From assembly GCA_028283765.1 (NCBI GenBank), contig JAPWJY010000007.1:1-64000 (forward strand): 64,000 nucleotides of DNA. The letters are read 5' to 3'. A program made the translations under genes and the position numbers. This DNA comes from Parvibaculaceae bacterium (GTDB taxonomy: Bacteria > Pseudomonadota > Alphaproteobacteria > Parvibaculales > Parvibaculaceae). The notes beneath the pieces are model-generated. The model saw only the letters and a list, made by a program, of their open reading frames with translations, had not been told where the DNA came from and ran no database searches. Position 1 is the first letter of the stretch; each line of letters opens with the position of its first letter. Below, in pieces: positions 1 through 63,281 of the stretch.

Positions 1-734
1 TCAAGGTGCGGGGCCCGCTCAATATCGCGCGGCCCGTGCAGGGCTGGCCGGTGATCGTCCAGGCCGGCGCATCGGAGGCCGGACGCCAGCTCGCGGCGGA
101 AACGGCGGAGATGATTTTCGCCGCCGGCGGCAGCCTTGAGGCGGCGCGCTCCTTCTATGCCGACGTGAAGGGGCGGATGAAGGCGCTGGGCCGCAACCCG
201 GACCATCTGAAAGTGCTTCCCGGCGCTTTCGTGGTGGTGGGCGATACGGTGGAGGAGGCGCGCGCCAAGCGGCTGAAGCTCGACAGTCTCGTCCATTATG
301 ACAGCGCCATCGCCTCGCTTTCCGTTTCGCTGGGCACGGATGCCTCCCGCTTCGATCCCGATGCGCCGCTGCCGGATATTCCGGAAAGCAATGCCAGCAA
401 GAGCGCGCGGGAGCGGCTGATCGAATCCTCGCGCCGCGACGGGTTGACCGTGCGCCAGCTTGCCCAGCGGGTCGGCGGCTTTGCGGGTTCGGCCTTTGTC
501 GGTACGCCCAGAACGATTGCCGACGAGATGGAGGAATGGCTGGAAACCGAAGCCTGCGACGGCTTCAACGTGATGTTTCCCTTTCTGCCGCAGGGTCTCG
601 ACGATTTCGTGGACCGCGTGGTGCCGGAGTTGCAGGCGCGCGGCATCTTCCGGCGCGAATATGAAGGCACGACCCTGCGGGAAAATCTGGGTCTGCCGCG
701 CCCGGAAAACCGCTTCTTTCCTTCAGCAGGCTGA
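1..734 (+). CDS. LLM-class flavin-dependent monooxygenase, C-terminal part (DszA/NtaA/SnaA-like)
   Basis: The reading frame is open from the left edge, so the N-terminal half lies outside the window; about 244 residues are visible. The segment PVIVQAGASEAGRQLAAETA near the visible start is characteristic of the FMNH2-dependent NtaA/SnaA/DszA monooxygenase family. These enzymes use reduced flavin supplied by a partner reductase to cleave C-N or C-S bonds; DszA opens dibenzothiophene sulfone to a sulfinate. The conserved tail (GFNVMFPFLP, then PELQARGIFRREYEGTTLRENL) matches the family C-terminus. DszB-like and DszC-like genes 3-4 kb downstream on the same strand favour a sulfone substrate, but this is context, not proof. 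Confidence 0.85.
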   Translation, partial: KVRGPLNIARPVQGWPVIVQAGASEAGRQLAAETAEMIFAAGGSLEAARSFYADVKGRMKALGRNPDHLKVLPGAFVVVGDTVEEARAKRLKLDSLVHYDSAIASLSVSLGTDASRFDPDAPLPDIPESNASKSARERLIESSRRDGLTVRQLAQRVGGFAGSAFVGTPRTIADEMEEWLETEACDGFNVMFPFLPQGLDDFVDRVVPELQARGIFRREYEGTTLRENLGLPRPENRFFPSAG

Positions 735-794
735 CAGGATTTGAGAGAGTATGACGCCGGGCCGTGCCTGTGCATGGTCCGGCGTCATCAGGTC

Positions 795-2384
795 TTACTC
801 CGGCAGCAACTGCGCCGAGGCGAAGTTCTCGAACGTGCCGTCGCCGCCGATGCTGTAGTCGATCAGCCGGCGGTTTCTCAGCACCCCGGGATCCGCGTTG
901 ACCAGCGGGATCAGGGGCAGGTCGGTCTGCACGATTTGTTGAAACCGCTTGTAGAATTCATAGCGCCGCGCCGGATCGGTTTCGATCTGGGCGTCCTCCA
1001 GAAGCTTGTCGACTTCCGGGTTCACATAATGGGCCACGTTTGAAAAAGCGACGCCGGGCTTGAAGTTCTTCGACCAGTAGATGCGCTGGGTGCCGATTGC
1101 CGGATCCGGTCCCGCCGAGCCGCCATAGGTGGTTATGTCGAAGTCCCGCTCGGTATATATCCGGCGGATGAAGCCGGCGAAATCGTCCCATTGCACATCG
1201 AGCGCGATGCCCACCTGGCCGAGGGCGGTCCGGATATATTCCGCCTGCCTGTAGGCCGCATCCCCGGTCGCCTGCGGACGGAAGATGGCGGAGATGCGGG
1301 TGCCTTTTGCATCCGGCTTGAAGCCAGCCGCATCCAGCAGCTCGATGGCGCGGGCCGGATTAAAGGGGTAATGGGGAACATCGTCCGTGTAAAAAGGCTT
1401 TACCTGTGACGGCAAGGGGCCGGTTCCCACAGTGCCATGGCCATAATAGACATTTTTCAGGATGAACCGGGTATCAATTGCGTGGGCTATCGCCTGACGC
1501 ACACGCACATCGCGGAAAAAGGGCTTGTCGAGATTGAAGGCGAGGCCTGAATAGAGCGAATAGCGTGGCGCGACAGGGTCCAGAACCAGCGAAGGTTCCT
1601 TCGACAACCGGTCTATGTCGCTTGGCGTCACGGCGCCAAGCTGTATCTCGCCTGTCTCAAGTGCGACGCTCTGGGCGGCCGGGTCCGGCAGCACCCTGTA
1701 AATGATCTCGTCAAGATAGGGTTTGGGCTGATCCCAGTAATTCGGATTGCGCGCCAGCGCGATATATTCGCCGCGCTTCCATTCGACGAACCGGAACGGG
1801 CCGGTGCCGATGGGCGCGACATTGTGCGGGTTCTGGAGAATATCCGTTCCCTGATAAAGATGCCGGGGCAGCACCTGCGATTCGGAAGACCCCAGCGCCG
1901 CCAGCAGATAGGGCGCGGGCTTTGACAGGTGGAAGATGGCGCTGAGAGGATCGGGCGTGTCGACCGACACCACATTGGCGAAAGTGGATCTGCCCCGGCT
2001 GTGATATTTCTTCCAGAGTTCAAGGCACGAGAAGGCGACATCCGCCGAGGTGAAGGGCGTGCCGTCGTGCCATGTCACCCCCGGGCGCAGATCGAGGCTG
2101 ATGGATAGCTGATCGGGCGAAACCTTCCATGCCGTCGCAAGCTGGGGCACAGGATTGAGGCTGGTGTCATAGGCGACCAGCCCGTCGAAAATTTTGGTGG
2201 AAACGGCCTGGGCGATGCCTTCCGTCGAAAAGCCGCTGGTGAGCAGGGTCGCCTCGGGAAACTGCCCGATGATCAACCGGCCGCCCCGCTGCGGCGGAGT
2301 GGCGGCCCTGAGGGGAGAAAAGCCCGAGGGCAGCAGCACGCTGACAAGCCCCATCTGCAATATGTGTCGACGTGTAACAGGCAT
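795..2384 (-). CDS. ABC transporter peptide/nickel-type substrate-binding protein (SBP family 5)
   Basis: About 529 residues, a normal length for DppA/OppA-like periplasmic binding proteins. The N-terminus has a short arginine pair followed by a hydrophobic stretch ending near an Ala-rich cleavage site, so export by Tat or Sec is likely. Family signatures visible are WKVSPDQLSISLDLRPGV.WHDGTPF.S.DV, the IGTGPFRFVEWKRGEYI block and VRQAIAHAID. The start at 2384 is chosen over the one at 2405 because a GGAG sequence lies just upstream. No permease or ATPase is nearby, so it either serves a distant transporter or one partly outside the window. It is divergent from the rhodanese gene and shares a palindromic intergenic region with it. 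Confidence 0.9.
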   Translation of the reverse strand: MPVTRRHILQMGLVSVLLPSGFSPLRAATPPQRGGRLIIGQFPEATLLTSGFSTEGIAQAVSTKIFDGLVAYDTSLNPVPQLATAWKVSPDQLSISLDLRPGVTWHDGTPFTSADVAFSCLELWKKYHSRGRSTFANVVSVDTPDPLSAIFHLSKPAPYLLAALGSSESQVLPRHLYQGTDILQNPHNVAPIGTGPFRFVEWKRGEYIALARNPNYWDQPKPYLDEIIYRVLPDPAAQSVALETGEIQLGAVTPSDIDRLSKEPSLVLDPVAPRYSLYSGLAFNLDKPFFRDVRVRQAIAHAIDTRFILKNVYYGHGTVGTGPLPSQVKPFYTDDVPHYPFNPARAIELLDAAGFKPDAKGTRISAIFRPQATGDAAYRQAEYIRTALGQVGIALDVQWDDFAGFIRRIYTERDFDITTYGGSAGPDPAIGTQRIYWSKNFKPGVAFSNVAHYVNPEVDKLLEDAQIETDPARRYEFYKRFQQIVQTDLPLIPLVNADPGVLRNRRLIDYSIGGDGTFENFASAQLLPE

Positions 2385-2416
2385 TCGCTGCTCCGGTTGA
2401 TACAAACCATGTCCTG

Positions 2417-2458
2417 AATTTATAGTATAGAAAGTTGATAGAGTAAGTACTATAATTT
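2417..2458. promoter_or_regulatory. Candidate operator: interrupted palindrome between divergent genes
   Basis: Two 11-bp arms, AATTTATAGTA (2417-2427) and TACTATAATTT (2448-2458), are inverted repeats matching at 10 of 11 positions with a 20-bp spacer. They lie in an AT-rich island between the binding-protein gene (minus) and the rhodanese gene (plus). This is where a dimeric regulator could control both genes. No regulator gene is seen nearby, so the protein is unknown. Confidence 0.45.
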
Positions 2459-2503
2459 GACGGGTTCATCAGGAGGGCATTCCTGCCCGAGGGAGGCGAG
2501 ACC

Positions 2504-3637
2504 ATGAGCATCCGGCATATCCACCGCGCAACGCTGCAAAAATGGCTCACCGAAGGCGCGGCCATCGCGGGAGAGGAACTGGCCCTTGTCGATGTCCGCA
2601 GCGAGTCTGCGTTCGCCAAGGGGCATCCGTTTTTCGCGACCAACGTTCCTCTGGCGCGGCTGGAAAAGGAAGCCAGGAGCTTCCTGCCGCGCAAAACGGT
2701 GAGGACCGTGCTGGTCGACGATGGCGGAAGCGATGCGGAGGAGGCCGCCGCCATTCTGGAACGTCTCGGCTATACCGACATCAACATTCTGGAGGGTGGC
2801 GTGCCCGGATGGATGGCCGGTGGGGAAAACGGCCTTCCCACCTTCGATATTCCCGGCATCATTTTCTCGCAAAGCATTCGCGACACGCGGGGCACGCCCT
2901 CGATTTCCGCTAACGAACTCAACGAGCTTTACAAGGCGGGGGCCGATGTCGTCGTGCTCGACACGCGCACGGTGGAGGAGTTCGAGAGCTATCATGTGCC
3001 GGGCGCGCGCAGCCTGCCGGGTTCGGAAATCATTCACCGGTTTCTGGATTATGTGCCGTCGCCGGAAACGTTCGTCGTGGTTTCCTGCGCGGGCCTGCCC
3101 CGGGCGATCATCGGCGCGCAGTCGCTTATCGATGCCGGCGTGCCCAACCGGGTGGCGTTCCTCGAAGATGGGACAAGCGGATGGACGCGGGCGGGGCTGG
3201 AGCTCGAATCCGGTCCGGTGGACAGGTTCGACGCGCCCAGCGGAAAGGCCGCGGCTTTCGGCGCAAGCCATGTGCAGGCGCTCGCGGACCGCGTGAACAT
3301 CGACAGGATCAGCCGCGACGAGCTTGCGGGATGGCTCGCTGACGAGACGCGGACGACATATGTGCTCGACGTCCGGCTGGCGCCGGAATTCGGCAAACGA
3401 CATTTCCCCGGCTCGGTCTCTGCACCGGGCGGCCAGTTGCTGGCGGTGTCGCATCGCAGCGTCGCCGTCAGGGGCGCGCGGCTGGTTCTGGTCGGCGACA
3501 GCGACACGGTTCTGACGACGACGGCCTACTGGCTGAAGCAGCGCGGCTGGGACGTGCGGATTCTGCCCGATGCCTTGCCGAAGGAAGCTACCCCGCCGCG
3601 TGAGGCCGTGCGTGGACTGGAGCCCGCGCACGGGTGA
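2504..3637 (+). CDS. Triple-domain rhodanese-like protein
   Basis: Three successive rhodanese homology domains are visible, at roughly residues 10-115, 125-245 and 265-365. Each shows the V(L)DVRS/VLDTR/VLDVR element followed by FxxxHxPGA-like segments. Only the middle domain has the active-site cysteine (VVVSCAGLPRA). The first has Asp and the third Gly-Asp at the equivalent place, so they are probably structural or regulatory. Rhodaneses move sulfane sulfur between donors and thiol acceptors. A strong Shine-Dalgarno stretch (GGGAGG) precedes ATG 2504. The gene ends 38 bp before the DszB-like gene and is probably co-transcribed with it, which fits sulfur handling after C-S cleavage. Confidence 0.9.
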   Translation: MSIRHIHRATLQKWLTEGAAIAGEELALVDVRSESAFAKGHPFFATNVPLARLEKEARSFLPRKTVRTVLVDDGGSDAEEAAAILERLGYTDINILEGGVPGWMAGGENGLPTFDIPGIIFSQSIRDTRGTPSISANELNELYKAGADVVVLDTRTVEEFESYHVPGARSLPGSEIIHRFLDYVPSPETFVVVSCAGLPRAIIGAQSLIDAGVPNRVAFLEDGTSGWTRAGLELESGPVDRFDAPSGKAAAFGASHVQALADRVNIDRISRDELAGWLADETRTTYVLDVRLAPEFGKRHFPGSVSAPGGQLLAVSHRSVAVRGARLVLVGDSDTVLTTTAYWLKQRGWDVRILPDALPKEATPPREAVRGLEPAHG

Positions 3638-3675
3638 GGCCGGTTGCACCCTTCTTCAAATCACAGGAAAAGATC

Positions 3676-4737
3676 ATGACCTTGCCCGATAGCGATCTGC
3701 ACGCCAGAGCTGACGTTCCGGAAATCTGGTATACGCGCTGCCCGGTGCCGACGACGTCCGGCATTGCCCAGCATTACCGCTGGATCCATCAGGCGTTCGA
3801 GCCGGACGGCATCATCGTGCAGTCGCTTCAGGATTCCGACGATCCTGCGGTGCGGCGTTCGCATTTCACCCACAGCCTGCCTGCGAGCTTCCGCGAGGGA
3901 GGGAATATTCCGGCCATCTGGGCCAGGGCCAACGGCCAGGACACGGCTGTCGTTGGCATCAGCTGGGTCGATGAGGAACAGCTTGTGCTGGTGCGCGCCG
4001 ACAGCGGCATCAAGACGCTGGCGGACCTCAGGGGACGCAGGCTCGGCATTCCCAGACACGCCGCGCAGGTTGTGGATTTCCCCCGCGCACAGGATCTGCA
4101 TGGGCTGGTCACGGCTCTGGGTCTTGGCGGCCTTGTGCCGGGGGATGTCGAGTTCGTCGATATTCCGGGGCATGATTTCGAACAGCGGGACGCCGATGGC
4201 AAGCGGCCGAAATTTCGCAATGTCACAGCGGAAGCGTTGATTGATGGCCGGGTGGACGTGATCTACGCCAAGGGCGTCTCCAGCGCCGCACTGGTGAAGG
4301 ATCTGGGGCTGTGGCCTCTGCTCGATATCAATGCCCAGCCGGACCCGTTCGTGCGCGTCAACACGGGCACGCCGCGCCCGGTGACGGTCAATCGCGATCT
4401 GGCGCTGGAGCGGCCTGATATCGTCGCCCGCTATCTGGCGACCCTGCTGAAAACCGCCGTATGGGCCAGGAGCCACTCTGCGGAGGTAGTCGCTGCCGTC
4501 GCCACTGAAACCGGCAGCACGGATGAGAATGTGCGGCGCGGCTATGGTCCCGATCTGCACCTTCATTTCGATGTGCAACTTTCGCCGCAATACACAGAAG
4601 GCCTGCGCCAGCAAAAGGCCTTCCTGCACGAATGGGGTTTCCTGAAAAGTGATTTCGATTTCGACGACTGGATCGTTGCCGAGCCGCTGCGGCTGGCCGC
4701 CGAAATCGTCGAGCGGGAAGGCACCCGGATCGGCTGA
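3676..4737 (+). CDS. DszB-like desulfinase (HPBS desulfinase / SsuA-fold family)
   Basis: 353 residues, close to the 365 of Rhodococcus DszB (2'-hydroxybiphenyl-2-sulfinate desulfinase). The N-terminal motif YTRCPVP (Cys22) matches the DszB active-site segment YSNCPVP. HFTHSLPASFREGG places His63 and Arg73 ten residues apart, the same spacing as the DszB His and Arg. The fold is that of sulfonate/taurine ABC binding proteins (TLADLRGRRLGIP), and automated annotation may call it SsuA-like. Two points argue for an enzyme: there is no signal peptide, and the catalytic Cys, His and Arg are retained. ATG 3676 is chosen because AGGA lies upstream; an in-frame GTG at 3634 overlaps the rhodanese stop. 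The substrate is unknown. Confidence 0.75.
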   Translation: MTLPDSDLHARADVPEIWYTRCPVPTTSGIAQHYRWIHQAFEPDGIIVQSLQDSDDPAVRRSHFTHSLPASFREGGNIPAIWARANGQDTAVVGISWVDEEQLVLVRADSGIKTLADLRGRRLGIPRHAAQVVDFPRAQDLHGLVTALGLGGLVPGDVEFVDIPGHDFEQRDADGKRPKFRNVTAEALIDGRVDVIYAKGVSSAALVKDLGLWPLLDINAQPDPFVRVNTGTPRPVTVNRDLALERPDIVARYLATLLKTAVWARSHSAEVVAAVATETGSTDENVRRGYGPDLHLHFDVQLSPQYTEGLRQQKAFLHEWGFLKSDFDFDDWIVAEPLRLAAEIVEREGTRIG

Positions 4738-4815
4738 AAGGGGATGACGGGGGAAACCCCGCCATCATCGTTGCACGACCGGATTTTGTTATGATTGAAC
4801 CAAGGACCGATGCTC

Positions 4816-6051
4816 ATGTCTCTCCAGTCTGCCGCCAAACTTGCCTCGCGACCGAGCCGGGAAGAAATATTGTCCCGCCTGCCGGAGATTGCGGCCGACA
4901 TTGCGAAGGGGGCGGCAAAACGTGAACTTGACCGCGAATTGCCGTTCGAGGTTTTCAGGAAGTTGCGGTTGACGGGGCTGACCTATCTGCGCGTGCCCAC
5001 GGTGCTGGGCGGGCCGGGGGGCTCGCTCTCCGATCAGGTCGAGGTCACATGTGCGCTGGCGGCGGCGGATTCCAACGTGGCGCATGCGCTGCGCGGCCAT
5101 TTTGGTTTTCTCGAATCCATGGCGCTCGATCCCCATTCGCCCTCAAGCCAGCAATATGCAGGCGAGGTGCTGAACGGAAAACTGTTCGGCGGCGCGCATA
5201 TGGAGATCAACACGCCCCGGCCCAACATGATCCGCACCCGGCTGGTCAAGGCCGGGGACAAGTTCCGGCTCACCGGCAAGAAATATTATGCAACGGGCGC
5301 GGCCTATTCCGACTATACGAGCTTCAGCGCGCTTGACGAGGAGGGCGAACTGACCGGCGTGCTGGTGCCCGCGGACCGCAAGGGCGTCGATATCCTCGAC
5401 GACTGGGACGGCATGGGCCAGCGGCTGACCGCGAGCGGTGGCGTCGACCTGAACGATGTGGAAATCCTGCCTGAGGAAGTGGGCGCGCGGCGCGGCTTTG
5501 GCGGCGGCAATCCCTTCATGCGCCGCCATCAGGCCACGCGGGCCCAGCTTCATCTTGCCGCCGTGATTTGTGGCATCGTCCGCAATGTCCAGAGCGATGC
5601 GATCAGCTATGTGCAGACCAAGGCTCGCTCCGCCAAGCACAGCGCCTCGGAAACCGCGCGGGGCGACCATTTCGTGCAGAATGTCGTGGGGGAAATCTCG
5701 GCGGCGTCCTACACCATCGACACGCTGATCTCCGATACGGCGCGAATCCTCGACGTGGCGGCGGCAGGCATCCTCGCGGGCGCGCCCAATCTCGATGAGC
5801 TGGTGCTGCGCGGCCAACTCGCCAATTCCAAGGCGCAGATCATGATCGGCAAACTGGCCGTCCGTGCCGCCGAGCAGATTTTCGACACGGGCGGAGGCTC
5901 GGCGACGTCGCGGAAATATAATTATGACCGGCACTGGCGCAACATTCGCACCATCCTCAACCATAATCCGCTGCTGCTCAAAGGCCGGGTGATCGGAGAC
6001 TATTATCTGAACGGCGTGCGCGACGATTTCGACGAAGGCCGGGTCTTCTGA
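4816..6051 (+). CDS. DszC/SfnC-like flavin monooxygenase (acyl-CoA dehydrogenase fold)
   Basis: 411 residues from ATG 4816, which has AAGGA nine bases upstream; ATG 4810 is an alternative. The length and the C-terminal motif YDRHWRNIRTILNHNP parallel DszC and its relatives (class D flavin monooxygenases), which oxidise sulfides or sulfoxides to sulfones with FMNH2 and O2. Other family marks are the N-terminal helical part with LRVPTVLGGPGGS, the central strand segment LTGKKYYATGAAYSDY and the DDWDGMGQRLTASG block. Standing behind a DszB-like gene and a DszA-like gene, it completes a dszA/B/C-like gene set. A flavin reductase (DszD) is not visible in the window. Confidence 0.8.
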   Translation: MSLQSAAKLASRPSREEILSRLPEIAADIAKGAAKRELDRELPFEVFRKLRLTGLTYLRVPTVLGGPGGSLSDQVEVTCALAAADSNVAHALRGHFGFLESMALDPHSPSSQQYAGEVLNGKLFGGAHMEINTPRPNMIRTRLVKAGDKFRLTGKKYYATGAAYSDYTSFSALDEEGELTGVLVPADRKGVDILDDWDGMGQRLTASGGVDLNDVEILPEEVGARRGFGGGNPFMRRHQATRAQLHLAAVICGIVRNVQSDAISYVQTKARSAKHSASETARGDHFVQNVVGEISAASYTIDTLISDTARILDVAAAGILAGAPNLDELVLRGQLANSKAQIMIGKLAVRAAEQIFDTGGGSATSRKYNYDRHWRNIRTILNHNPLLLKGRVIGDYYLNGVRDDFDEGRVF

Positions 6052-6091
6052 ATTTGGGATGATCTGCCGACGATACAGGCAAGCAACAAAC

Positions 6092-6129
6092 AAAAAGCCC
6101 GCCTTCCATCATGGAGAGCGGGCTTTTTT
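6092..6129. terminator. Bidirectional rho-independent terminator after the DszC-like gene
   Basis: Arms AAAAAGCCCGC (6092-6102) and GCGGGCTTTTTT (6118-6129) form a perfect GC-rich stem. T-runs on either strand let it end transcription from both directions, that is from the sulfur genes and from the tRNA-Pro gene. Confidence 0.85.
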
Positions 6130-6191
6130 GTCGTTTCTGGGGTGATTTCTAGGGCCGATCGGGTCGGGAAGGCCTAATCCCTTGTTTTACT

Positions 6192-6268
6192 TGGTCGGAG
6201 TGAGAGGATTCGAACCTCCGACCCCCTCGTCCCGAACGAGGTGCGCTACCAGGCTGCGCCACACTCCG
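6192..6268 (-). tRNA. tRNA-Pro (anticodon CGG)
   Basis: The minus strand folds into a cloverleaf: acceptor CGGAGTG/CACTCCG, a D arm containing AGCCTGGTAGCGC, anticodon stem CCTCG/CGAGG with loop TTCGGGA, and T loop TTCGAAT. The anticodon CGG reads proline CCG codons. The CCA end is encoded. Confidence 0.95.
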
Positions 6269-6425: not shown

Positions 6426-6500
6426 TGGGGCGTCGCCAAGTGGTAAGGCAGCGGATTTTGATTCCGCCATGCGGAGGTTCGAATCCTCCCGCCCCAGCCA
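6426..6500 (+). tRNA. tRNA-Gln (anticodon TTG), probable ICE integration site
   Basis: Acceptor arms TGGGGCG/CGCCCCA, anticodon loop TTTTGAT, T loop TTCGAAT and an encoded CCA are all present. The anticodon TTG reads glutamine CAA. Foreign-element sequence begins directly after the CCA. The last nine bases (CCCCAGCCA) recur at 40442-40450 at the other end of the ICE, so this gene is the likely attachment site. Confidence 0.95.
6492..6500 (+). repeat. Candidate attL: 9-bp repeat at the tRNA-Gln 3' end
   Basis: CCCCAGCCA, the 3' end of tRNA-Gln, is repeated in the same orientation at 40442-40450, just outside the last ICE gene. A short direct repeat flanking an element at a tRNA 3' end is a usual footprint of site-specific integration. 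Nine bases is short, so this is a candidate only. Confidence 0.45.
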
Positions 6501-17507: not shown

Positions 17508-17747
17508 ACGCGCACAGACCATTGTGTCCGGTCTTGGCGCTGCCGGGTTTCTTTCCCTTTCGATAAGGACAGCGCAGATGAGCGTAGGTGGTCGCAGAGC
17601 GGATCACGAATTCGGTTTAGTGCCGGTGTAATCGGGCATGACGCAGCGCCGGCCGCGCCGAAACGTACCCGCAAGCCGTCATTGGCCGGCACACTGCCCG
17701 TCACCGGCGCCGATCCTCGGCCGCCGAAGCGACGGAGGGCGGCGGCG

Positions 17748-18830
17748 ATGGCTCACTTTGCAGGACTGGACGTGTCGATCGAGGAGACGGCGGTGTGCGT
17801 CGTCGATGAAGAGGGGACGGTGCTGATGCAATGTTCCGTCGCGACCGAACCGGAGGCCATCGCCAAGGTGCTCTTGCCGTTCGCGGCAACGCTGAAGCGC
17901 GCCGGCCACGAGGCCGGGTCGCTGTCGCCCTGGCTGCATCCGGAATTGAAGGCGCAGGGCATTCCGGTGGTCTGCCTGGAGACGCGCCAGGTGCGCGCGG
18001 CGATGTCGGCCCAGCGCAACAAGACCGACGCCACCGACGCGCTGGGCCTCGCGCATCTGATGCGCACGGGCTGGTTCCGCCAGGCTCATGTGAAGACCGA
18101 GGGCGCCTACCGGCTGAAGCTGCTCTTGACCCATCGCCGCAACCTGAAGCGCAAGTTCCTCGACCTGGAGAACGCCATCCGCCACTCGCTGAAGAGCTTC
18201 GGCGTGAAGCTCGGCAAGGTGAGCCGCGGCGCCATGGAGCAGGCCGTCCGCGACGCCTGCGCCGACGATCCGCTGACCGCCGAGCTGATGGACTGCATGC
18301 TGACGGCGCGCGCGGCGCTGTGGAAACAGTACCTCAAGCTGCACAACCTGGTGGTCCGGCTGGTGGCGCGCGACGAGTTGTGCCGGCGCTTCATGGCGAT
18401 CCCCGGCGTGGGGCCGGTGACCGCGCTAACCTTCAGCACGGCGATCGACGATCCGAGGCGGTTCCGGCGCTCGCGCGACGTCGCCGCCTATTTCGGCCTG
18501 ACGTCCAGGCGCTGGCAGTCGGGCACGTCGATCGACGTGCAGGGCCGCATCAGCAAGCAAGGCGATCCGGAGGTCCGGCGCGCGCTCTACGAGGCGGCCA
18601 GCGCCATGCTGACGCGCTACAAGGGCAAGACGGCGCTCAAGAGCTGGGGCCAGAAGATCGCCAAGCGCTGCCACAAGAAGGCGGTGGTGGCGATGGCCCG
18701 CAAGCTCGTCGTCGTCATGCACGCGATGTGGCGCGACGGCACGGTCTATGCCGATCGGCCGCTCGCCGACGGTTCGTCCGGCGCCGCGCCGACGGCGAAG
18801 GATATCAGGCTTCTGGGCGCTTTCGCATGA
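17748..18830 (+). CDS. IS110-family transposase
   Basis: 360 residues from ATG 17748. The N-terminal DEDD RuvC-like domain shows FAGLDVSIEETAV (first Asp) and NKTDATDALGLAHLM (later Asp pair). The C-terminal Tnp2 domain shows MAIPGVGPVTALTFSTAIDDP, AYFGLTSRRWQSG and EVRRALYEAA. IS110/IS1111 enzymes lack terminal inverted repeats and use a bridge (seeker) RNA encoded in a non-coding end to choose the target. About 240 bp upstream and about 530 bp downstream are gene-free and probably hold the element ends and this RNA. The insertion separates the transglycosylase and relaxase genes. Confidence 0.9.
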   Translation: MAHFAGLDVSIEETAVCVVDEEGTVLMQCSVATEPEAIAKVLLPFAATLKRAGHEAGSLSPWLHPELKAQGIPVVCLETRQVRAAMSAQRNKTDATDALGLAHLMRTGWFRQAHVKTEGAYRLKLLLTHRRNLKRKFLDLENAIRHSLKSFGVKLGKVSRGAMEQAVRDACADDPLTAELMDCMLTARAALWKQYLKLHNLVVRLVARDELCRRFMAIPGVGPVTALTFSTAIDDPRRFRRSRDVAAYFGLTSRRWQSGTSIDVQGRISKQGDPEVRRALYEAASAMLTRYKGKTALKSWGQKIAKRCHKKAVVAMARKLVVVMHAMWRDGTVYADRPLADGSSGAAPTAKDIRLLGAFA

Positions 18831-26440: not shown

Positions 26441-26497
26441 TTTCCGTCTTTCCACGCGATGCTCGTTCCGTTTGTCCCCTGTAACGGAACGGTGCCC

Positions 26498-28534
26498 ATG
26501 ACCCCTACCAAGCTTTTGATCGGTCAGATCATCATCGTCTTCGCCATGACCATCACCGGCGTGTGGTCGGCGACGGAGTGGTGCGCGTCCATGCTCGGCT
26601 TTCAACCGCAACTCGGGCCGCCGTGGTTCGTGCTGTTCGGTTGGCCGGTCTACGAGCCATGGGCGTTGTTCCCGTGGTGGTATCATTACGATGCCTATGC
26701 GCCGCAAATCTTCGATACGGCGGGGATGCTGGCGGGCGCCAGCGGGTTCATGGGATGCGCCACCGCCATCGTCGGCTCGCTTTGGCGGGCGCGGCAGACC
26801 CGGCTGGTGACCACCTATGGCTCGTCACGCTGGGCTTTGAAGCGCGAAGTTGAAAGGGCCGGGCTGTTCCGGGCGGCGGGGGTGTTTCTCGGGCGATATG
26901 GCGACGAGTATCTCCGCCATGATGGGCCTGAGCATGTCATGGCGTTCGCACCAACGCGCTCGGGTAAGGGCGTTGGGCTAGTGGTGCCGACGCTGCTGTC
27001 GTGGACCGGCTCGGCGGTGATTCATGACATCAAGGGCGAGAACTGGCAGTTGACGGCGGGGTGGCGAGCGAAGTTCTCGCACTGCCTGCTGTTCAATCCC
27101 ACCGATCCGCGTTCCGCCCGCTACAATCCGCTGCTGGAAGTGCGCAAGGGGCCGGACGAGGTGCGTGACGTTCAAAACATCGCCGACATCCTGGTGGACC
27201 CGGAAGGGGCGCTGGAACGGCGCAGTCACTGGGAAAAGACCAGCCATTCGCTGCTGGTCGGCGCCATCCTGCATGTGCTGTACGCCGAGGAGGAGAAGAC
27301 CCTGGCGCGGGTGGCGACGTTCCTGTCCGATCCGCAGCGCAGCTTTGCCCATACCCTGCGGCGGATGATGGCGACTAATCATCTCGGCACGCCGGATCAT
27401 CCGCAAGTTCACCCGGTGGTGGCCTCCGCCGCGCGCGAGGTGCTGAACAAGTCGGAGAACGAACGCTCCGGCGTGCTGTCCACCGCCATGTCGTTCCTGG
27501 GTCTCTATCGCGATCCCACGGTGGCGCAGACCACGTCGGCCTGCGATTGGCGTATCGCCGATCTGATGGATGCCGAGCACCCGGTGTCGCTCTATCTGGT
27601 GATTCCGCCCTCCGACATTTCACGGACCAAACCGCTGGTGCGGTTGGTGCTGAACCAGATCGGGCGGCGGTTGACCGAGCGGCTGGAAGGCGATCCCAAG
27701 AAAACCCGCAAACACCAGCTTTTGATGATGCTGGACGAGTTCCCGGCTCTGGGGCGGCTGGATTTCTTCGAGACGGCGTTGGCCTTCATGGCCGGGTACG
27801 GCATTCGCGCCTATCTGATCGCTCAATCCTTGAATCAGATTTCCAAAGCCTATGGCGAGAACAACGCCATCCTCGACAATTGCCATGTCCGCATCGCCTT
27901 TTCCTCCAACGACGAGCGAACGGCCAAGCGGATTTCCGACGCGCTGGGGACAGCGACAGAATTGCGCGCCCAACGCAATTACGCCGGACACCGGCTGGCC
28001 CCATGGCTGTCGCATGTGATGGTGTCCCGGCAAGAGACGGCCCGTCCGCTGCTGACCCCCGGCGAGGTGATGCAGTTGCCGCCTGCCGATGAGCTGGTAC
28101 TGGTCTCCGGCCTGTTGCCGATCCGGGCCAAGAAACTGCGCTACTACGAGGACCGGAATTTCACTGGGCGGGTCTTGAGCGCGCCTTCATTGGCGACCGG
28201 CGGCTACGCCGACAAGCCGCAGCCGCGCGCCGATGATTGGAGCGGCCAGGTGCGGGACATCGATGACCGTCTGATGCCACCCGACGAGGATGGCGTAAAG
28301 CGCACTGCGATGGGTGATGAAGGCGGTCTTCAGCAGCAGCGCCATCCCAGCCTCGGGCAGGATGCGCCGACCGGCACCCCTGAGCCGAACCAGGGCGAAT
28401 TGTTCACCTCGCCTGACGAGGACAACGACACCGTAGCCGACGCCCAAGTCATGGATAGGATTTCGACTGCGGCGCGGGTCTATGGCGTCGATGAAGGCAT
28501 GAAGCACGACCAGGACATCGTGCCGGGATTCTAA
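26498..28534 (+). CDS. traG: TraG/VirD4 coupling protein
   Basis: 678 residues from ATG 26498. Two N-terminal membrane segments (about 8-28 and 70-95) are followed by Walker A (APTRSGKGVGLVVPTLL) near residue 150 and Walker B (LLMMLDEFPALG) near 410. It is the ATPase that links the relaxase-DNA complex to the mating pore. The C-terminal 80 residues are acidic and variable. It stands alone between the SbcDC-like pair and the trb operon, preceded by the repeated upstream element. Confidence 0.95.
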   Translation: MTPTKLLIGQIIIVFAMTITGVWSATEWCASMLGFQPQLGPPWFVLFGWPVYEPWALFPWWYHYDAYAPQIFDTAGMLAGASGFMGCATAIVGSLWRARQTRLVTTYGSSRWALKREVERAGLFRAAGVFLGRYGDEYLRHDGPEHVMAFAPTRSGKGVGLVVPTLLSWTGSAVIHDIKGENWQLTAGWRAKFSHCLLFNPTDPRSARYNPLLEVRKGPDEVRDVQNIADILVDPEGALERRSHWEKTSHSLLVGAILHVLYAEEEKTLARVATFLSDPQRSFAHTLRRMMATNHLGTPDHPQVHPVVASAAREVLNKSENERSGVLSTAMSFLGLYRDPTVAQTTSACDWRIADLMDAEHPVSLYLVIPPSDISRTKPLVRLVLNQIGRRLTERLEGDPKKTRKHQLLMMLDEFPALGRLDFFETALAFMAGYGIRAYLIAQSLNQISKAYGENNAILDNCHVRIAFSSNDERTAKRISDALGTATELRAQRNYAGHRLAPWLSHVMVSRQETARPLLTPGEVMQLPPADELVLVSGLLPIRAKKLRYYEDRNFTGRVLSAPSLATGGYADKPQPRADDWSGQVRDIDDRLMPPDEDGVKRTAMGDEGGLQQQRHPSLGQDAPTGTPEPNQGELFTSPDEDNDTVADAQVMDRISTAARVYGVDEGMKHDQDIVPGF

Positions 28535-28637: not shown

Positions 28638-29039
28638 ATAAAACACGACAAAATACGCCACCAATTCCTGCTCGATCCGGCCTTGAGCGAAAAGCTCGAC
28701 AAGCTGAGCCGTGGTCCGGGCGTGACCAAATCCGAGATCGTCGCCAAGGCGGTCGCGGCCTTCATCGACCGGCGCGGTGAGACCGAACTCGACCAGCGAT
28801 ACGGCAAGCGTCTCGACCGGATATCGCGCGATCTCGAACGCGCGCGGCGCGACATCGAGATGATCCTCGAAAGCCTCGCACTTTTCATCCGCTTCACCAT
28901 CACGCTCAACGCCCATACGCCGGTACCGGACAAGGCCACCCAGGCGGTGGCCGAGGCACGGTTCCAGAACTTCGTCGAACAGGTCGGCCGCCAGATCGCC
29001 GGTGGCAAGCACGCTTTCGGCGAAAGGGGTGAGCCATGA
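28638..29039 (+). CDS. Ribbon-helix-helix (CopG-like) regulator of the trb operon
   Basis: About 133 residues if started at the ATA of 28638, giving an N-terminus KHDKIRHQFLLDPALSEKLD. That matches this family, whose members start with an ATG at this very place. A GGGA lies eight bases upstream. No ATG, GTG or TTG exists upstream in frame before a stop at 28608. The next usable start is TTG 28683, which would delete the first strand of the DNA-binding domain. The rest (VTKSEIVAKAVAAFIDRRG) is the helix pair, followed by a helical tail. It overlaps trbB by four bases and is the likely autoregulator of the operon. Confidence 0.7.
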   Translation: MKHDKIRHQFLLDPALSEKLDKLSRGPGVTKSEIVAKAVAAFIDRRGETELDQRYGKRLDRISRDLERARRDIEMILESLALFIRFTITLNAHTPVPDKATQAVAEARFQNFVEQVGRQIAGGKHAFGERGEP

Positions 29040-30001
29040 CCGACACGGCCAACCAACGTCGCCACGCCATGCTGAAGACGGCCATGGGACCGGCCATCGC
29101 CCAAGCCTTGGCCGACCCCGCGATCATCGAGGTGATGGTCAATCCCGATGGGAGCCTGTGGATTGATCGGCTGGGCGAGGGACGCTTTTCCGCTGACGTG
29201 CGCATCCATGCGTCCGAGGTGGAGCGGATCATCCGGCTGGTCGCGTCCCATGTGCGCACCGAAGTCCATGCCGACAATCCCATCGTCAGTGCGGAGCTGC
29301 CCTCCGGTGAACGCTTCGAGGGACTATTGCCGCCGGTGACGAAAGGGCCGTGCTTCGCCATCCGCAAACCGGCGGCCAGGATCTTCACACTCGCCGATTA
29401 TGTCCGCGAACGGATCATGCTGCCCGTTCAGGCTGACACCCTGCGCCAGGCTGTGCGTGAGCGGCGCAATATCCTGATCGCCGGTGGCACGTCGTCGGGC
29501 AAGACCACGCTGGCCAACGCGCTGCTGGCGGAAATCGCCGGCAGCGGCGAACGGGTGATCCTGATCGAGGATACGAGCGAGCTGCAATGCGCCGCCAGGG
29601 ATTGCGTGGCGCTTCGCACCAAACCGGGAATCGTCACGCTGGCCGATCTCGTCCGCTCGACGCTCCGTCTGAGGCCCGACCGGATCATTGTCGGCGAGGT
29701 GCGCGGGGCCGAAGCGCTCGACATGCTGAAAGCCTGGAACACCGGCCATCCCGGCGGCATCGCCACCGTCCACGCCAACTCGGCCCGCTCGGCGCTCTAT
29801 CGCGTCGAGCACCTCGTTCAGGAGGGCGTCGCCACCGTGCCCCGCCGCCTGATCGCCGAGGCTATCGACATCATCGTCTTCATTGCCGGTCGCGGTGCCA
29901 ACCGCCGCGTCGAAACCATCGCCGAAATCGCCGGCCTCGACGAAGGCGGCGATTACGCCGTCACCACCCTCGATACCAACAGACCTGAACCGACCACCTG
30001 A
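29036..30001 (+). CDS. trbB: TrbB, VirB11-like conjugation ATPase
   Basis: 321 residues. Walker A is IAGGTSSGKTTLANALL near residue 145, followed by an Asp box (VILIEDTSELQC), Walker B (RPDRIIVGEVRGAEALDML) and the His box (GHPGGIATVHANS). VirB11-type hexameric ATPases power pilus assembly and substrate transfer at the inner membrane. The gene starts within the stop of the ribbon-helix-helix gene (ATGA) and opens the canonical trbBCDEJLFGI order. Confidence 0.95.
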   Translation: MTDTANQRRHAMLKTAMGPAIAQALADPAIIEVMVNPDGSLWIDRLGEGRFSADVRIHASEVERIIRLVASHVRTEVHADNPIVSAELPSGERFEGLLPPVTKGPCFAIRKPAARIFTLADYVRERIMLPVQADTLRQAVRERRNILIAGGTSSGKTTLANALLAEIAGSGERVILIEDTSELQCAARDCVALRTKPGIVTLADLVRSTLRLRPDRIIVGEVRGAEALDMLKAWNTGHPGGIATVHANSARSALYRVEHLVQEGVATVPRRLIAEAIDIIVFIAGRGANRRVETIAEIAGLDEGGDYAVTTLDTNRPEPTT

Positions 30002-47123: not shown

Positions 47124-48014
47124 ATGGAAGCTGTTCATCTGCCGTCAAACAGCACGGTGGAGGATGTTACGGCGGCGCTGCGTGAGCACGGCTATTGTAT
47201 CGTCGATGAGCTGGTGCCGGCGTCGCTCATGGATAGCATTGCCGATGAAATGGGGCCTTATGTCGAGGCGTCGCCGTTCGGTATCGACAATATGCTGGGC
47301 AAGCTGACCAAGCGGACGGGCGCGATGATCGCGCGTTCGCCGGCCGCGCGGGATCTGGTGATGAACCCGCTCGCCATTGCGGTCGCCGGCAAGTGGCTTG
47401 AGAAGGCCACGACCATGCGCCTTCATCTGACCCAGATCATCAGCGTGTTTCCGGGGTCTCCCGCCCAGCCCCTGCATCGCGATGAGCTGGCCTGGGATTT
47501 CTTCAAGTTCCCGCTCGATTATGAGGTTCAGTGCAACATTCTGTGGGCCTTCACCGACTTCACCATCGAGAATGGCGCAACCCATGTCGTGCCCGGAAGC
47601 CATCTCGTTGAGGGTGATCAGAAATATCCCCGCGACCAGAGCATTCAGGCCGCGATGAAGCGGGGGTCGGCCCTGTTCTATACCGGCAAGATCTATCATG
47701 GCGCGGGTGAAAACCGCTCGGACAAGGTCCGGCAGGCGATCAACATCACCTATGCCGTCGGCTGGGTGCGTCAGGAAGAAAACCAGTATCTCTCCACGCC
47801 GCTGGAAATTGCGCAGACCCTGCCCGAAGACCTTTTGAAGGTGATGGGCTATCAGCTCGGTTGCTTCGCTCTGGGCTATGTGGGCGATGCGGAAGATCCG
47901 ATGTGGGTGCTGCACAGGCCCGAGGAGCGCACGAGCTTCGGCATCGAGCATATGGAGAAGACCGCCGGGAAACAGGATTCGGCCAGCAGCTTCCTTGAGG
48001 AAGTCGGCCAGTAA
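47124..48014 (+). CDS. Phytanoyl-CoA dioxygenase family Fe(II)/2-oxoglutarate oxygenase (paralogue 1)
   Basis: 296 residues from ATG 47124, with AGGAGG a few bases upstream. The iron ligands are visible as His118 and Asp120 (PLHRDELAWDFF) and His192 (KIYHGAGENRSD); Arg203 is placed to bind 2-oxoglutarate. The family hydroxylates small molecules such as phytanoyl-CoA, ectoine or alkaloid-like compounds. The product is very similar along its whole length to that of the gene at 57032-57937. It is followed after 28 bases by ridA, with which it is probably co-transcribed. Confidence 0.9.
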   Translation: MEAVHLPSNSTVEDVTAALREHGYCIVDELVPASLMDSIADEMGPYVEASPFGIDNMLGKLTKRTGAMIARSPAARDLVMNPLAIAVAGKWLEKATTMRLHLTQIISVFPGSPAQPLHRDELAWDFFKFPLDYEVQCNILWAFTDFTIENGATHVVPGSHLVEGDQKYPRDQSIQAAMKRGSALFYTGKIYHGAGENRSDKVRQAINITYAVGWVRQEENQYLSTPLEIAQTLPEDLLKVMGYQLGCFALGYVGDAEDPMWVLHRPEERTSFGIEHMEKTAGKQDSASSFLEEVGQ

Positions 48015-57031: not shown

Positions 57032-57937
57032 ATGGAGCTTCTGCATCTCCCCCCGACGGCGACCCCTGAAGAGGTTGCGGCTTCGGTCAACGAGAACGGA
57101 TACGCGATCGTCGACGAGCTTGCGTCCAGTGAGCTGATGGATGCCATCAGCGCGGAAATGGCGCCTTATGTGGACAATTCGATGTATGGGCTGGACAGTT
57201 TCCTGGGCCTGACCACGAAGCGGACCGGAGCCCTGATTGCGCGTTCGGAAGCCGCGCGCAAGCTCATCATGAACCCGACGGCGCTGGGAACGGCCGGCAT
57301 CGTGTTGCAGCAGGCGTCTGCCTTCCAGTTGCACCTGACGCAGATCATCAGCGTTTATCCGGGTTCCCCCGCCCAGAAGCTGCATCAGGACGAGGTCGCC
57401 TGGGACTTTTTCCCGTTCCCGCTCGACTATCAGATCCAGTGCAACCTGTTGTGGGCGATGACCGACTACACCGAAGAGATGGGGGCTACCCGCGTCGTGC
57501 CCGGCAGTCACCTCTCGACCCGCAAGAAATACGATATTTCCGACAGCCTGCCCGCGGTCATGAAGCGCGGTTCGGCGCTCTTCTACTCCGGCAAGGTGTT
57601 CCATGGCGCGGGGGAGAACAAGTCCGACAGGCTGCGTCAGGCCATCAACATCACCTATGCCGTCGGCTGGGTCCGTCAGGAGGAAAACCAGTTCCTCTCG
57701 ACGCCGATTGAAATTGCCAAGACGCTGCCGGATGATCTGCTGAAGCTGATGGGCTACCAGCTGGGCTGCTTCTCGCTGGGCTATGTCCGCGACGGCGAGG
57801 ACCCGATGGTCGCGATCCGCGAGCCGGAGCGCCGCGAGGCTTACAATGTTGGCATTCTTGCCGAAACGGCGCTCAAGCGGCAGCCTCATCTTCAGGGCTT
57901 CCTGCGCGACATCAAAATGGCTGAAACGGATAGCTGA
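57032..57937 (+). CDS. Phytanoyl-CoA dioxygenase family Fe(II)/2-oxoglutarate oxygenase (paralogue 2)
   Basis: 301 residues, closely related to the protein at 47124-48014. It keeps the iron ligands His118, Asp120 (KLHQDEVAWDFF) and His191 (VFHGAGENKSD) and the 2-oxoglutarate Arg202. Differences concentrate at residues 48-60 and 88-100, where substrate contacts are likely. The two genes are 9 kb apart with the liv-type importer between them. This suggests duplication with division of labour, such as successive hydroxylations or two related substrates. The gene stands alone, divergent from luxR. Confidence 0.9.
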   Translation: MELLHLPPTATPEEVAASVNENGYAIVDELASSELMDAISAEMAPYVDNSMYGLDSFLGLTTKRTGALIARSEAARKLIMNPTALGTAGIVLQQASAFQLHLTQIISVYPGSPAQKLHQDEVAWDFFPFPLDYQIQCNLLWAMTDYTEEMGATRVVPGSHLSTRKKYDISDSLPAVMKRGSALFYSGKVFHGAGENKSDRLRQAINITYAVGWVRQEENQFLSTPIEIAKTLPDDLLKLMGYQLGCFSLGYVRDGEDPMVAIREPERREAYNVGILAETALKRQPHLQGFLRDIKMAETDS

Positions 57938-58880: not shown

Positions 58881-59882
58881 TCAGGCCGCGTGGCTCAGGA
58901 AATGCTCCGCGACCTTGAGGGTGTTGTCTGTGAATTTCGTCCCTAACTGTTGGGCGATGGGGACCTCGGCGTGCGCCGCGACCCAGCCGGTGAGCAGGAT
59001 GCGCCGGGCGGCGACCAGCGTCGGCAACTCGGCGACCTCCGCCGCGCCAAGGGGGGCAACCGTGCGATAGCCCTCGACCCAGGCTTCCATCAGTTCCGGC
59101 ACGACGGGATTATCCTCAAAAAAGCTGACGGCGGTGGCGAAATCATAGAGGTACCAGCTCAGGCCACAATCGTCGAAATCGATCACATGGAGGTGAGGCG
59201 GCGCGACCAGCAGGTTCGCAAGCCGCATGTCCGCGTGGACGAGGCCAAAGCGGTCGGGGCCGCGGCCGAAGCGGTCCAGCCTCTCCCGGATCACGCGGAG
59301 CGTACGCGTCAGCAGGCGCGCGCCGTCGGGGGTCAGGCCCATGCCTTCCTCCCATGGCCCCCAGTGACGCACCCGGCCGAACATCGATTCAAAGTCCCAC
59401 ACCTTGCGGGTGAAGCCCTCGGGCCGCCGCCATTGCTGAACATGGCCGTGCATCCGGGCCGTCAGGGCGCCCAGCATGTGGAAGGAGGAAGCCAGGCCTG
59501 CGCCCTGTTCGGGCTCCCGGCCTTCTACGAACTCAAAGGCGACGGCATATCGGGGCGGCCGTCCGCCGGGGGACATCAGCCTTTGTACCAGAACGCCGTC
59601 GATGCCCGGGATGGGCTGGGGCGTTTCGATGACCCGCTCGGCGCGCAGCGCCATGATCCAGGCCAGTTCCGACTGGATTTCCTCCGGCGCATGGTAGCCG
59701 TCCCGGTGGATGCGCAGCACGAGGGCGCGTCCGTTTGCGCCGTCTTCCAGAAGATATGTCGCGTTTTCCGAAATGCTGAGAAGCCGGATGCTGGTGTCGG
59801 GCGGCAGACCCCATCTGGCCAGATTGCCCCTGACCATGGCTTCAAAGTCCCGCAGGACATCATCCGCATACTCGGCCGACAT
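58881..59882 (-). CDS. APH/CHK-fold phosphotransferase (homoserine/hydroxylysine-kinase-like)
   Basis: 333 residues of the aminoglycoside phosphotransferase fold. The Brenner motif is [15 protein letters not shown] and the metal-binding Asp is in [18 protein letters not shown]. The N-lobe shows [21 protein letters not shown], containing the ATP-binding strand. Relatives phosphorylate hydroxyls of amino alcohols or amino acids. Next to a hydroxylating PhyH enzyme and with a class III aminotransferase in the locus, a hydroxy-amine substrate is plausible. It is divergent from the spermidine-type importer, with a palindrome between them. Confidence 0.82.
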
Positions 59883-59976: not shown

Positions 59977-60086
59977 ATGTGTAGCCTCGCATGATCGAGG
60001 TTGGAGTTCCCACAATTATGTAAGGGGATGCAAAACCGGGGCCGTAGTCAGCGTCCGTCTGGGGCGCGCTTGTCGAGGGGTTGAGC

Positions 60087-61235: not shown

Positions 61236-61276
61236 TCTCCGCGACGGACAGCAGGCAGGAAGAGCAGGGTGTGTGA

Positions 61277-62353: not shown

Positions 62354-62356
62354 GCG

Positions 62357-63271: not shown

Positions 63272-63281
63272 GGGGCGCATC

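What the first reader, a model, noticed from the sequence alone, without database searches (positions are those of the whole stretch)
1..6051. A dszA/B/C-like C-S cleavage gene set with a rhodanese in a Gram-negative context
DszA-type (LLM), DszB-type and DszC-type genes lie on one strand within 6 kb. The DszB-like protein keeps Cys22, His63 and Arg73, with the His-Arg spacing of 10 seen in Rhodococcus DszB, and the CPVP motif. True DszB desulfinases are known from few, mainly actinobacterial, systems. The inserted rhodanese gene suggests coupling to sulfane-sulfur handling. The substrate may be a sulfone other than dibenzothiophene.
Basis: partly seen in the sequence, partly recalled or inferred. 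Interest (0 to 1): 0.75.

Follow-up and report, generated by a model that had tools for sequence, protein, structure and literature searches.

The report
Overlooked proteobacterial DszB-type sulfinate desulfinase cluster
A bacterium carries genes that probably strip sulfur out of organic sulfones, including a cousin of a sulfur-removing enzyme best known from oil-desulfurising actinobacteria; related genes turn up in many other Gram-negative bacteria, where the labelled copies we saw are called transport proteins.

Summary
The genes are real, with corrections. A minus-strand oligopeptide-type binding protein (795-2405) lies between the DszA-like gene, which is cut by the contig start, and the rhodanese-dszB-dszC-like genes. 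"DszA" is the general NtaA/DmoA class; the "DszC" protein falls below both the DszC and SfnB cut-offs.

The DszB reading holds. Rhodococcus DszB is the best solved match by sequence (profile E 9e-40) and fold (Z 33 against 26 for SsuA). Cys22, His63, Arg73 and Gly76 line up with C27, H60, R70 and G73. No signal peptide is seen. In a tree it groups with DszB, apart from 17 transport binding proteins; its 24-row clade is all Cys.

The rarity claim fails: in one species-level genome scan, 535 matching stretches encode relatives (a gene can match twice). The 78 loci kept are mainly rhizobia, Burkholderiaceae, Pseudomonas and methylotrophs. LLM monooxygenases lie nearby in 70 of 87 loci, a rhodanese relative in 14.

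Most likely it is a cytoplasmic desulfinase releasing sulfite in a sulfur-scavenging route (thioether/sulfone to sulfinate to sulfite). Activity was not testable; the substrate is unknown, probably not dibenzothiophene. In four places on the tree the Cys became Ser, usually beside a Cys copy.

The parts
3..734 (+). NtaA/DmoA-family FMN-dependent (LLM) monooxygenase, C-terminal 243 codons only; gene cut by the contig start; proposed sulfone C-S cleavage step (DszA role)
   Evidence: TIGR03860 280.8 bits vs cut-off 279.7 on the fragment; whole ortholog in L012 578 bits; DszA among the matches but not best
795..2405 (-). periplasmic binding protein of the oligopeptide/family-5 type (SBP_bac_5), divergent from the operon; proposed uptake of the organosulfur substrate
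   Evidence: PF00496 289 bits; SBP5 in 44 of 87 related loci
2504..3637 (+). three-domain rhodanese with a single Cys (C195); proposed handling of sulfite/sulfane sulfur
   Evidence: PF00581, three stretches; only Cys is C195 in SCAGLPR; a relative of at least 150 bits near DszB-like genes in 14 of 87 loci
3676..4737 (+). DszB-type desulfinase-like protein, 353 aa; Cys22, His63, His66, Arg73, Gly75, Gly76
   Evidence: start at ATG 3676 after AGGA
3739..3741 (+). codon of Cys22 (equivalent of DszB C27)
   Evidence: alignments
3862..3864 (+). codon of His63 (equivalent of DszB H60)
   Evidence: alignments
3892..3894 (+). codon of Arg73 of the RxGG motif (equivalent of DszB R70)
   Evidence: alignments; invariant in 114 of 114
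4795..6051 (+). SfnB/DszC-like flavin monooxygenase of the acyl-CoA dehydrogenase fold; proposed thioether/sulfoxide oxidation step (DszC role)
   Evidence: SfnB model 263 bits, DszC model 113 bits, both under cut-off; best solved matches are 8cda (probable monooxygenase), 6u76 (methanesulfinate monooxygenase) and 3x0x (DszC)

Best explanation
The cluster is a sulfur-scavenging module that works like a 4S pathway for an unidentified thioether or sulfone. An organosulfur compound is imported with the help of the family-5 binding protein (inferred). The SfnB/DszC-like flavoenzyme oxidises the sulfur to the sulfone (inferred from family). The NtaA/DmoA-family FMN monooxygenase cleaves one C-S bond to give a sulfinate (inferred from family). 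The DszB-type protein, in the cytoplasm, protonates the carbon that bears the sulfinate with the thiol of Cys22, with His63 and Arg73 of RxGG holding the thiolate and the sulfinate, and releases sulfite (residues shown, reaction inferred). The sulfite would go to an assimilatory sulfite reductase, while the rhodanese may buffer it as thiosulfate or handle sulfane sulfur (inferred). Flavin-reductase-family genes and a nitrite/sulfite-reductase-family gene are present elsewhere in the genome (shown; their roles inferred). The substrate is probably not dibenzothiophene.
For: DszB is the best solved relative by sequence. Fold: Z 33.0 over 314 residues for DszB C27S with its ligand, against 25.8 for the next family, SsuA; model pLDDT 93.6. 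C22/H63/R73/G76 match C27/H60/R70/G73; C27S is inactive and C27 is the proposed proton donor (PMC6100217, passages). Of 114 members with the N-terminus, C22 97, H63 103, R73 114, G75 114, G76 114; of 17 binding-protein rows none has the Cys, the His or RxGG at those columns. Tree: family plus DszB apart from the binding proteins (support 99); the window's 13-row clade (99) and 24-row clade (93) are all Cys. No signal peptide: the nearest ATG lies 4-22 residues before the Trp of the motif in all 113 of 117 members that have an ATG there; a strongly hydrophobic stretch (over 2.0) in 0 of 72 family upstream regions versus 26 of 43 outgroup rows. LLM monooxygenase in 70 of 87 loci, SfnB/DszC-like in 35. 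Five flavin-reductase matches and one nitrite/sulfite-reductase-family gene in the genome. Purifying selection.
Against: No activity is shown. DszB identity is only about 26%, and the only DszB in the tree sits on a long branch (2.05). DszB residue W155 (pocket role recalled) falls in an insertion that the family lacks, so the substrate class may differ, and the aromatic-substitution mechanism may not carry over to an aliphatic sulfinate. Cys is replaced by Ser in 17 of 114 members, so the protein also persists without it. Some binding-protein-like outgroup rows also begin without a hydrophobic stretch (among them low-scoring rows of L035, L036, L038 and L039), so lack of a signal peptide alone is not decisive. 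The Pfam NMT1 model (binding-protein-like) is just over its cut-off for the window protein (21.2 versus 20.5). 17 of 87 loci have no LLM in the stretch seen, and 19 of 87 have an SsuA-type gene nearby. LLMs are common genes, and no random-locus control was run. Side-chain geometry was not measured, as no model coordinates were found in the Python box.
Confidence: 0.72

Rival explanations
1. It is a sulfonate/sulfinate-binding protein (SsuA/TauA type) without enzyme activity, either a transport component or a cytoplasmic sensor.
For: Same fold family; SsuA is the second-best fold match (Z 25.8); NMT1 just above its Pfam cut-off (21.0 vs 20.5) and a sub-cut-off SsuA_fam hit; annotated as ABC transporter substrate-binding protein in the plasmid rows that carry a name (60 of 91 rows listed); an SsuA-type gene near 19 of 87 members; Ser variants show that the Cys is dispensable in some members.
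Against: No signal peptide; the Cys, His and RxGG are absent from the 17 outgroup rows; SsuA_fam 79 bits under the 163.5 cut-off; oligopeptide-type transporter ATPases occur near 47 of 87 members and family-5 binding proteins near 44, more often than SsuA-type genes.
Confidence: 0.1
2. It is an enzyme of the DszB family, but its main reaction is not desulfination of a sulfinate from a sulfone (for example another Cys-proton-donor C-S or C-C cleavage).
For: Low identity to DszB; different pocket (missing W155 insertion, Y63 replaced by an almost invariant His66); other enzymes share this fold (Thi5, MqnD, 4,5-dihydroxyphthalate decarboxylase in the fold lists).
Against: Neighbours are sulfur-type flavin monooxygenases and in places rhodanese, sulfate binding protein or sulfite oxidase; the DszB catalytic Cys, His and RxGG are kept.
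Confidence: 0.15
3. It is a dsz operon proper for dibenzothiophene in a Gram-negative bacterium.
For: All three kinds of gene are present.
Against: DszC-like protein 113 bits against the 850-bit DszC cut-off, while a true DszC control scores 865; DszB-like only 24-27% identical to DszB; LLM nearer to other members of its class than to DszA.
Confidence: 0.03

Closest known systems
[quoted passage not shown] PDB 2DE2, 2DE3)
   Same: Fold, Cys-His-RxGG set, CPVP motif, gene company of an NtaA/DszA-class and an SfnB/DszC-class monooxygenase (seen here in the mycobacterial dsz set)
   Different: About 26% identity; no W155-containing insertion; Tyr63 replaced by His66; different gene order with a rhodanese and an oligopeptide-type binding protein; host not actinobacterial
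bdsABC operon of Gordonia terrae C-6 (benzothiophene; PMC3868597, passages read)
   Same: Desulfinase plus two monooxygenases with low similarity to Dsz acting on a substrate other than dibenzothiophene; the paper also cites the Gram-negative benzothiophene desulfuriser Sinorhizobium sp. KT55
   Different: Actinobacterial; sequence not compared here
Dimethyl sulfide / dimethyl sulfone to sulfite route (SfnG, MsuD, MsuC; PMC13352529, abstract and passages read; the MsuC name is recalled)
   Same: Two-component flavin monooxygenases used to scavenge sulfur from sulfides and sulfones
   Different: That route passes through methanesulfinate and methanesulfonate, which MsuD/SsuD cleaves; here a desulfinase would release sulfite directly from the sulfinate
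SsuA/TauA sulfonate-binding proteins
   Same: Fold
   Different: Typically exported, lack the Cys/His/RxGG set

Membership tests
DszB desulfinase family | best sequence and fold match is DszB | tested here: met
DszB desulfinase family | catalytic Cys27, His60, Arg70 in RxGG, Gly73 | tested here: met
   C22, H63, R73, G76 in register
DszB desulfinase family | cytoplasmic, no signal peptide | tested here: met
   a crude hydropathy and start-codon test; in the window protein the motif Trp is residue 18
DszB desulfinase family | groups with DszB and not with transport binding proteins in a tree | tested here: met
   support 99; single DszB row on a long branch
DszB desulfinase family | pocket for 2'-hydroxybiphenyl-2-sulfinate (W155, F203; recalled) | tested here: inconclusive
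   W155 lies in an insertion that the family profile lacks; F203 not reliably aligned
DszB desulfinase family | releases sulfite from an aryl sulfinate | not testable with these tools
   needs purified protein
SsuA/TauA binding proteins | exported (signal peptide) | tested here: not met
SsuA/TauA binding proteins | TIGR01728 SsuA_fam above cut-off 163.5 | tested here: not met
   79.4 bits; a true DszB also falls below it, 65.4 bits
NMT1/THI5-like (PF09084, broad binding-protein-like family) | Pfam gathering score 20.5 | tested here: met
   21.0 bits for the 367-residue frame, 21.2 for the 353-residue protein; a fold-level family that says nothing on function
DszC dibenzothiophene monooxygenase | NF043015 above cut-off 850 | tested here: not met
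   112.8 bits; control DszC 865.4
SfnB | TIGR04022 above cut-off 430.9 | tested here: not met
   263.2 bits; a true DszC scores 299.2 on the same model, so the model does not separate the two
NtaA/DmoA FMN monooxygenases | TIGR03860 above cut-off 279.7 | tested here: met
   280.8 on the cut gene, 578.3 on the whole ortholog
dszABC operon for dibenzothiophene | contiguous dszA-dszB-dszC on one strand | tested here: not met
   a minus-strand binding protein gene and a rhodanese gene lie between; the pMyong1 control has the three genes contiguous

The most novel reading that the evidence does not exclude
A large, unassigned branch of DszB-type desulfinases is a regular part of sulfur scavenging in Proteobacteria. 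It acts on natural (perhaps benzothiophene-like, vinyl or alkyl) sulfinates made by neighbouring LLM monooxygenases, and it has repeatedly spawned Cys-to-Ser paralogues kept beside the Cys enzyme that may serve as non-catalytic partners or binding proteins.
Probability: 0.5. Interest if true: 0.62.

Novelty: new variant of a known kind. Interest (0 to 1): 0.48.

Why it matters
If true, direct desulfination of sulfinates is not an oddity of oil-desulfurising actinobacteria but a common way for Gram-negative bacteria to get sulfur, and many genes called ABC transporter binding proteins would be enzymes. A gap in the model libraries may explain the labels: in NCBIfam a true DszB matched only SsuA-type models, below cut-off, and in Pfam 46 of 48 family members match the broad NMT1 model. 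The family also offers many new scaffolds for biodesulfurisation, whose slowest step is said to be DszB (PMC4839641, passage), and natural Cys/Ser pairs to study mechanism.

Tried and rejected
Rejected: SsuA/TauA membership; dsz operon proper for dibenzothiophene; the rarity claim. Considered and not adopted: the Chelatococcus DszB report (PMC4839641, passages) as a precedent for this family; the DszB peptide quoted there is contained letter for letter in the Rhodococcus DszB printed. Rhodanese as a specific marker: rejected as stated, because relatives of this rhodanese occur in 44 of 397 phylum genomes at E 1e-25, 40 of them without a DszB-like gene above 300 bits. Only the close form (64% identity) was shared by 2 of 397, the window's genome and G264; in G264 it lies about 5.5 kb from a DszB-like gene.

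Literature searches (open-access PMC only). "DszB-like", "PBP2_DszB" and sulfolane+sulfinate+monooxygenase gave no papers. No paper in these listings was seen to treat the proteobacterial branch, but I read passages of only six papers, and subscription journals were not searched. PMC6100217 says, citing its reference 12, that RXGG is conserved in homologues of DszB, so homologues were known to its authors.

Limits: the first neighbour counts lost genes hidden under longer antisense frames and were replaced. The residue counts used a similar filter, so some members were missed (one search shows extra copies in L048, L049, L055, L060, L100); one row without its N-terminus was left out of the residue counts. 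The 87 loci are not independent: L012 and L018 are the same contig, L024/L029 and L025/L084 lie on shared contigs, and the genus labels count the window's genus three times and lump plasmid records; L013 was dropped because it has no member. The 78 genome-contig loci are the best 80 hits and so lean to close relatives; the two search patterns can hit one gene twice, so the 535 stretches may be fewer genes. The tree used 70 representatives under 90% identity out of 114, by the quick method with one support value. The start-codon test takes the nearest ATG, which favours short N-termini. (11 genomes) added nothing. The absence of other folds means nothing. Neighbour counts have no random-locus control.
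Full report
WHAT IS THERE. The window is the first 64 kb of a 138 kb contig (C2) of a 3.24 Mb, nine-contig genome. From left to right: the C-terminal 243 codons of an NtaA/DmoA-family FMN monooxygenase (3-734 +), a family-5 binding protein on the other strand (795-2405 -), a three-domain rhodanese (2504-3637 +), a DszB-like protein (ATG 3676-4737 +) and an SfnB/DszC-like flavoprotein (4795-6051 +). The syntenic relative L012 has all five genes in the same order, with the monooxygenase whole (444 aa); window 1-6130 aligns to it at 90%. dN and dS are 0.021/0.268 (LLM part), 0.035/0.392 (DszB-like) and 0.012/0.272 (SfnB/DszC-like), so these three genes are under purifying selection.

IS IT A DszB OR A BINDING PROTEIN. 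By sequence, the best solved match is Rhodococcus DszB (phmmer E 4e-15; profile of 48 members E 9e-40, against 1e-6 for SsuA). The AlphaFold model (pLDDT 93.6, pTM 0.91) matches DszB C27S with its ligand at Z 33.0 over 314 residues and SsuA at Z 25.8. In the model, His63 lies in a helix (57-65). PMC6100217 (passages) says DszB residues 55-62 become a helix that brings H60 into the site when substrate binds, that C27 is the likely proton donor, that C27S is inactive, that H60Q is about 17-fold less active, and that R70 belongs to a conserved RXGG motif. C22, H63, R73 and G76 occupy these places. In 114 family members with an N-terminus, Cys22 is kept in 97 and is Ser in the other 17; His63 is kept in 103, His66 in 113, and Arg73, Gly75 and Gly76 in all 114. 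Eleven of the 17 Ser rows have also lost His63, and none of the 97 Cys rows has. Among 17 transport binding proteins none has a Cys in that column. A maximum-likelihood tree of 70 representatives, one mycobacterial DszB and 17 binding proteins, built without those two columns and rooted on the binding proteins, puts DszB as sister to the family (98) and both apart from the binding proteins (99). The window sits in a 13-row clade (99) inside a 24-row clade (93), both all Cys; Ser needs four changes. The nearest ATG lies 4-22 residues before the motif in 113 members; the other 4 of 117 have no ATG there. None of 72 family upstream regions has a strongly hydrophobic stretch (over 2.0), against 26 of 43 outgroup rows (a crude hydropathy test, not a signal-peptide program). 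A few low-scoring outgroup rows also start without one, so this is support and not proof of a cytoplasmic place. The window protein is just over the cut-off of the broad Pfam model NMT1, as a fold relative would be.

HOW COMMON. The best 80 gave 78 loci, from Rhizobium, Mesorhizobium, Burkholderia, Caballeronia, Paraburkholderia, Pseudomonas, Methylophilus and others, and one Pedobacter metagenome genome. 91 plasmid records hold one, 50 of them Sinorhizobium and 22 Rhizobium; the listed rows (60 of 91) that carry a name say ABC transporter substrate-binding protein. In an even sample of 397 phylum genomes, 93 have some match at E 0.001, but only 8 have one above 300 bits and the next score is 85 bits. 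Among the window's kin the gene is patchy: 2 of 61 genomes, both of the same genus, none of the 35 from other genera of the family. The window's own genome has four members: C2, C9 (61% identical), C7 (44%) and C8 (33%, Cys to Ser).

NEIGHBOURS. Around 87 loci with a member (mostly 8 kb each side, some shorter, some overlapping), an LLM monooxygenase occurs in 70 (33 of 37 genus labels), oligopeptide-type transporter ATPases in 47, family-5 binding proteins in 44, an SfnB/DszC-like gene in 35, an SsuA-type binding protein in 19, and a rhodanese relative of at least 150 bits in 14. Those 14 come from five genera: the window's own, Mesorhizobium, Caballeronia, Rhizobium and an unnamed gammaproteobacterium. 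The annotated Sinorhizobium meliloti AK83 locus adds a second DszB-like gene, an NtaA/DmoA monooxygenase, a sulfite oxidase and a sulfate transporter. These point to sulfur supply. No control with random loci was run. The closest rhodanese among 397 genomes (64%, G264) also lies about 5.5 kb from a DszB-like gene, but more distant relatives of it are in 44 of 397 genomes, 40 of them without a DszB-like member.

HOW IT LIKELY WORKS. The 4S-like scheme (thioether to sulfone to sulfinate to sulfite) follows from the enzyme classes: SfnB/DszC-like oxidation, LLM C-S cleavage, Cys-proton desulfination. Residues, fold and context are shown; reactions, order and substrate are inferred. Five flavin-reductase-family matches and one gene of the nitrite/sulfite reductase family elsewhere in the genome could supply reduced flavin and use the sulfite. 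The SfnB/DszC-like protein keeps the histidines that line up with DszC H92 and H391 (positions recalled; alignment). The pocket differs from DszB: Tyr63 is replaced by the near-invariant His66, and W155 (pocket role recalled) lies in an insertion absent here. Dibenzothiophene is therefore unlikely. A Gordonia benzothiophene operon with low similarity to Dsz (PMC3868597, passages) and the Gram-negative benzothiophene desulfuriser Sinorhizobium KT55 cited there make a smaller thiophene sulfone one plausible substrate class; an alkyl sulfone is another. In Gordonia alkanivorans 135 a sulfurtransferase transcript rose 2.9-fold with dibenzothiophene (PMC11852219, passages), a weak precedent for a rhodanese in such routes.

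THE SER BRANCHES. Of the 17 Ser genes, 16 have a Cys paralogue in the same locus; only the C8 copy does not. Since C27S kills DszB, these copies are probably not desulfinases, yet Arg73 and both glycines stay invariant, so they may bind the ligand. This is unexplained.

VERDICT.

Noticed in passing
L011:9051-10100 (-); L016:5224-6297 (-); L100, L101, L103; L061-L063: DszB-like copies with Cys replaced by Ser, all but the L011 copy in the same locus as a Cys copy; 11 of 17 also lost His63 while RxGG stays invariant. Possible non-catalytic partners.
   Followed up: partly
L035:9009-10007, L036:6939-7844, L038:6933-7880, L039:6959-7843: Beside DszB-like genes of Bradyrhizobium-type loci lie further binding-protein-like genes that start without a hydrophobic stretch: a possible second cytoplasmic family of this fold.
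   Followed up: no
L137:5263-14486 (G000:C7): Another likely sulfur-scavenging cluster in the same genome: SsuA/B/C-like transporter and TauD-like dioxygenase (named by eye), SfnB-like flavoprotein, LLM monooxygenase and a four-domain rhodanese.
   Followed up: partly
L010:6080-9839 and L009:1-6401: Two further DszB-like genes of the same genome, one beside an NtaA-type monooxygenase and a FAD oxidoreductase, one beside an LLM and oligopeptide-type transporter genes.
   Followed up: partly
window 6119-6228 versus L012:1-110: A segment of about 3.6 kb (nuclease-, esterase- and TetR-like genes, named by eye) lies between the cluster and the tRNA-Pro side in the relative and is absent in the window; loss or gain not decided.
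   Followed up: partly
window 8593-39000: Conjugative-element-like genes next to tRNA-Pro (6192-6268 -) and tRNA-Gln (6426-6500 +): ParB-like, DUF7146/Toprim, TraG/VirD4-type coupling protein (26459-28534), type II/IV secretion ATPase (29036-30001), IS110-type transposase (17682-18830). Ends not mapped.
   Followed up: no
window 58881-59882 (-): APH-type phosphotransferase family protein beside an ABC transporter that looks polyamine-type by eye (60081-64000); function not examined.
   Followed up: no
window 47199-47903 and 57107-57808: A 0.7 kb direct repeat, 73% identical, not examined.
   Followed up: no
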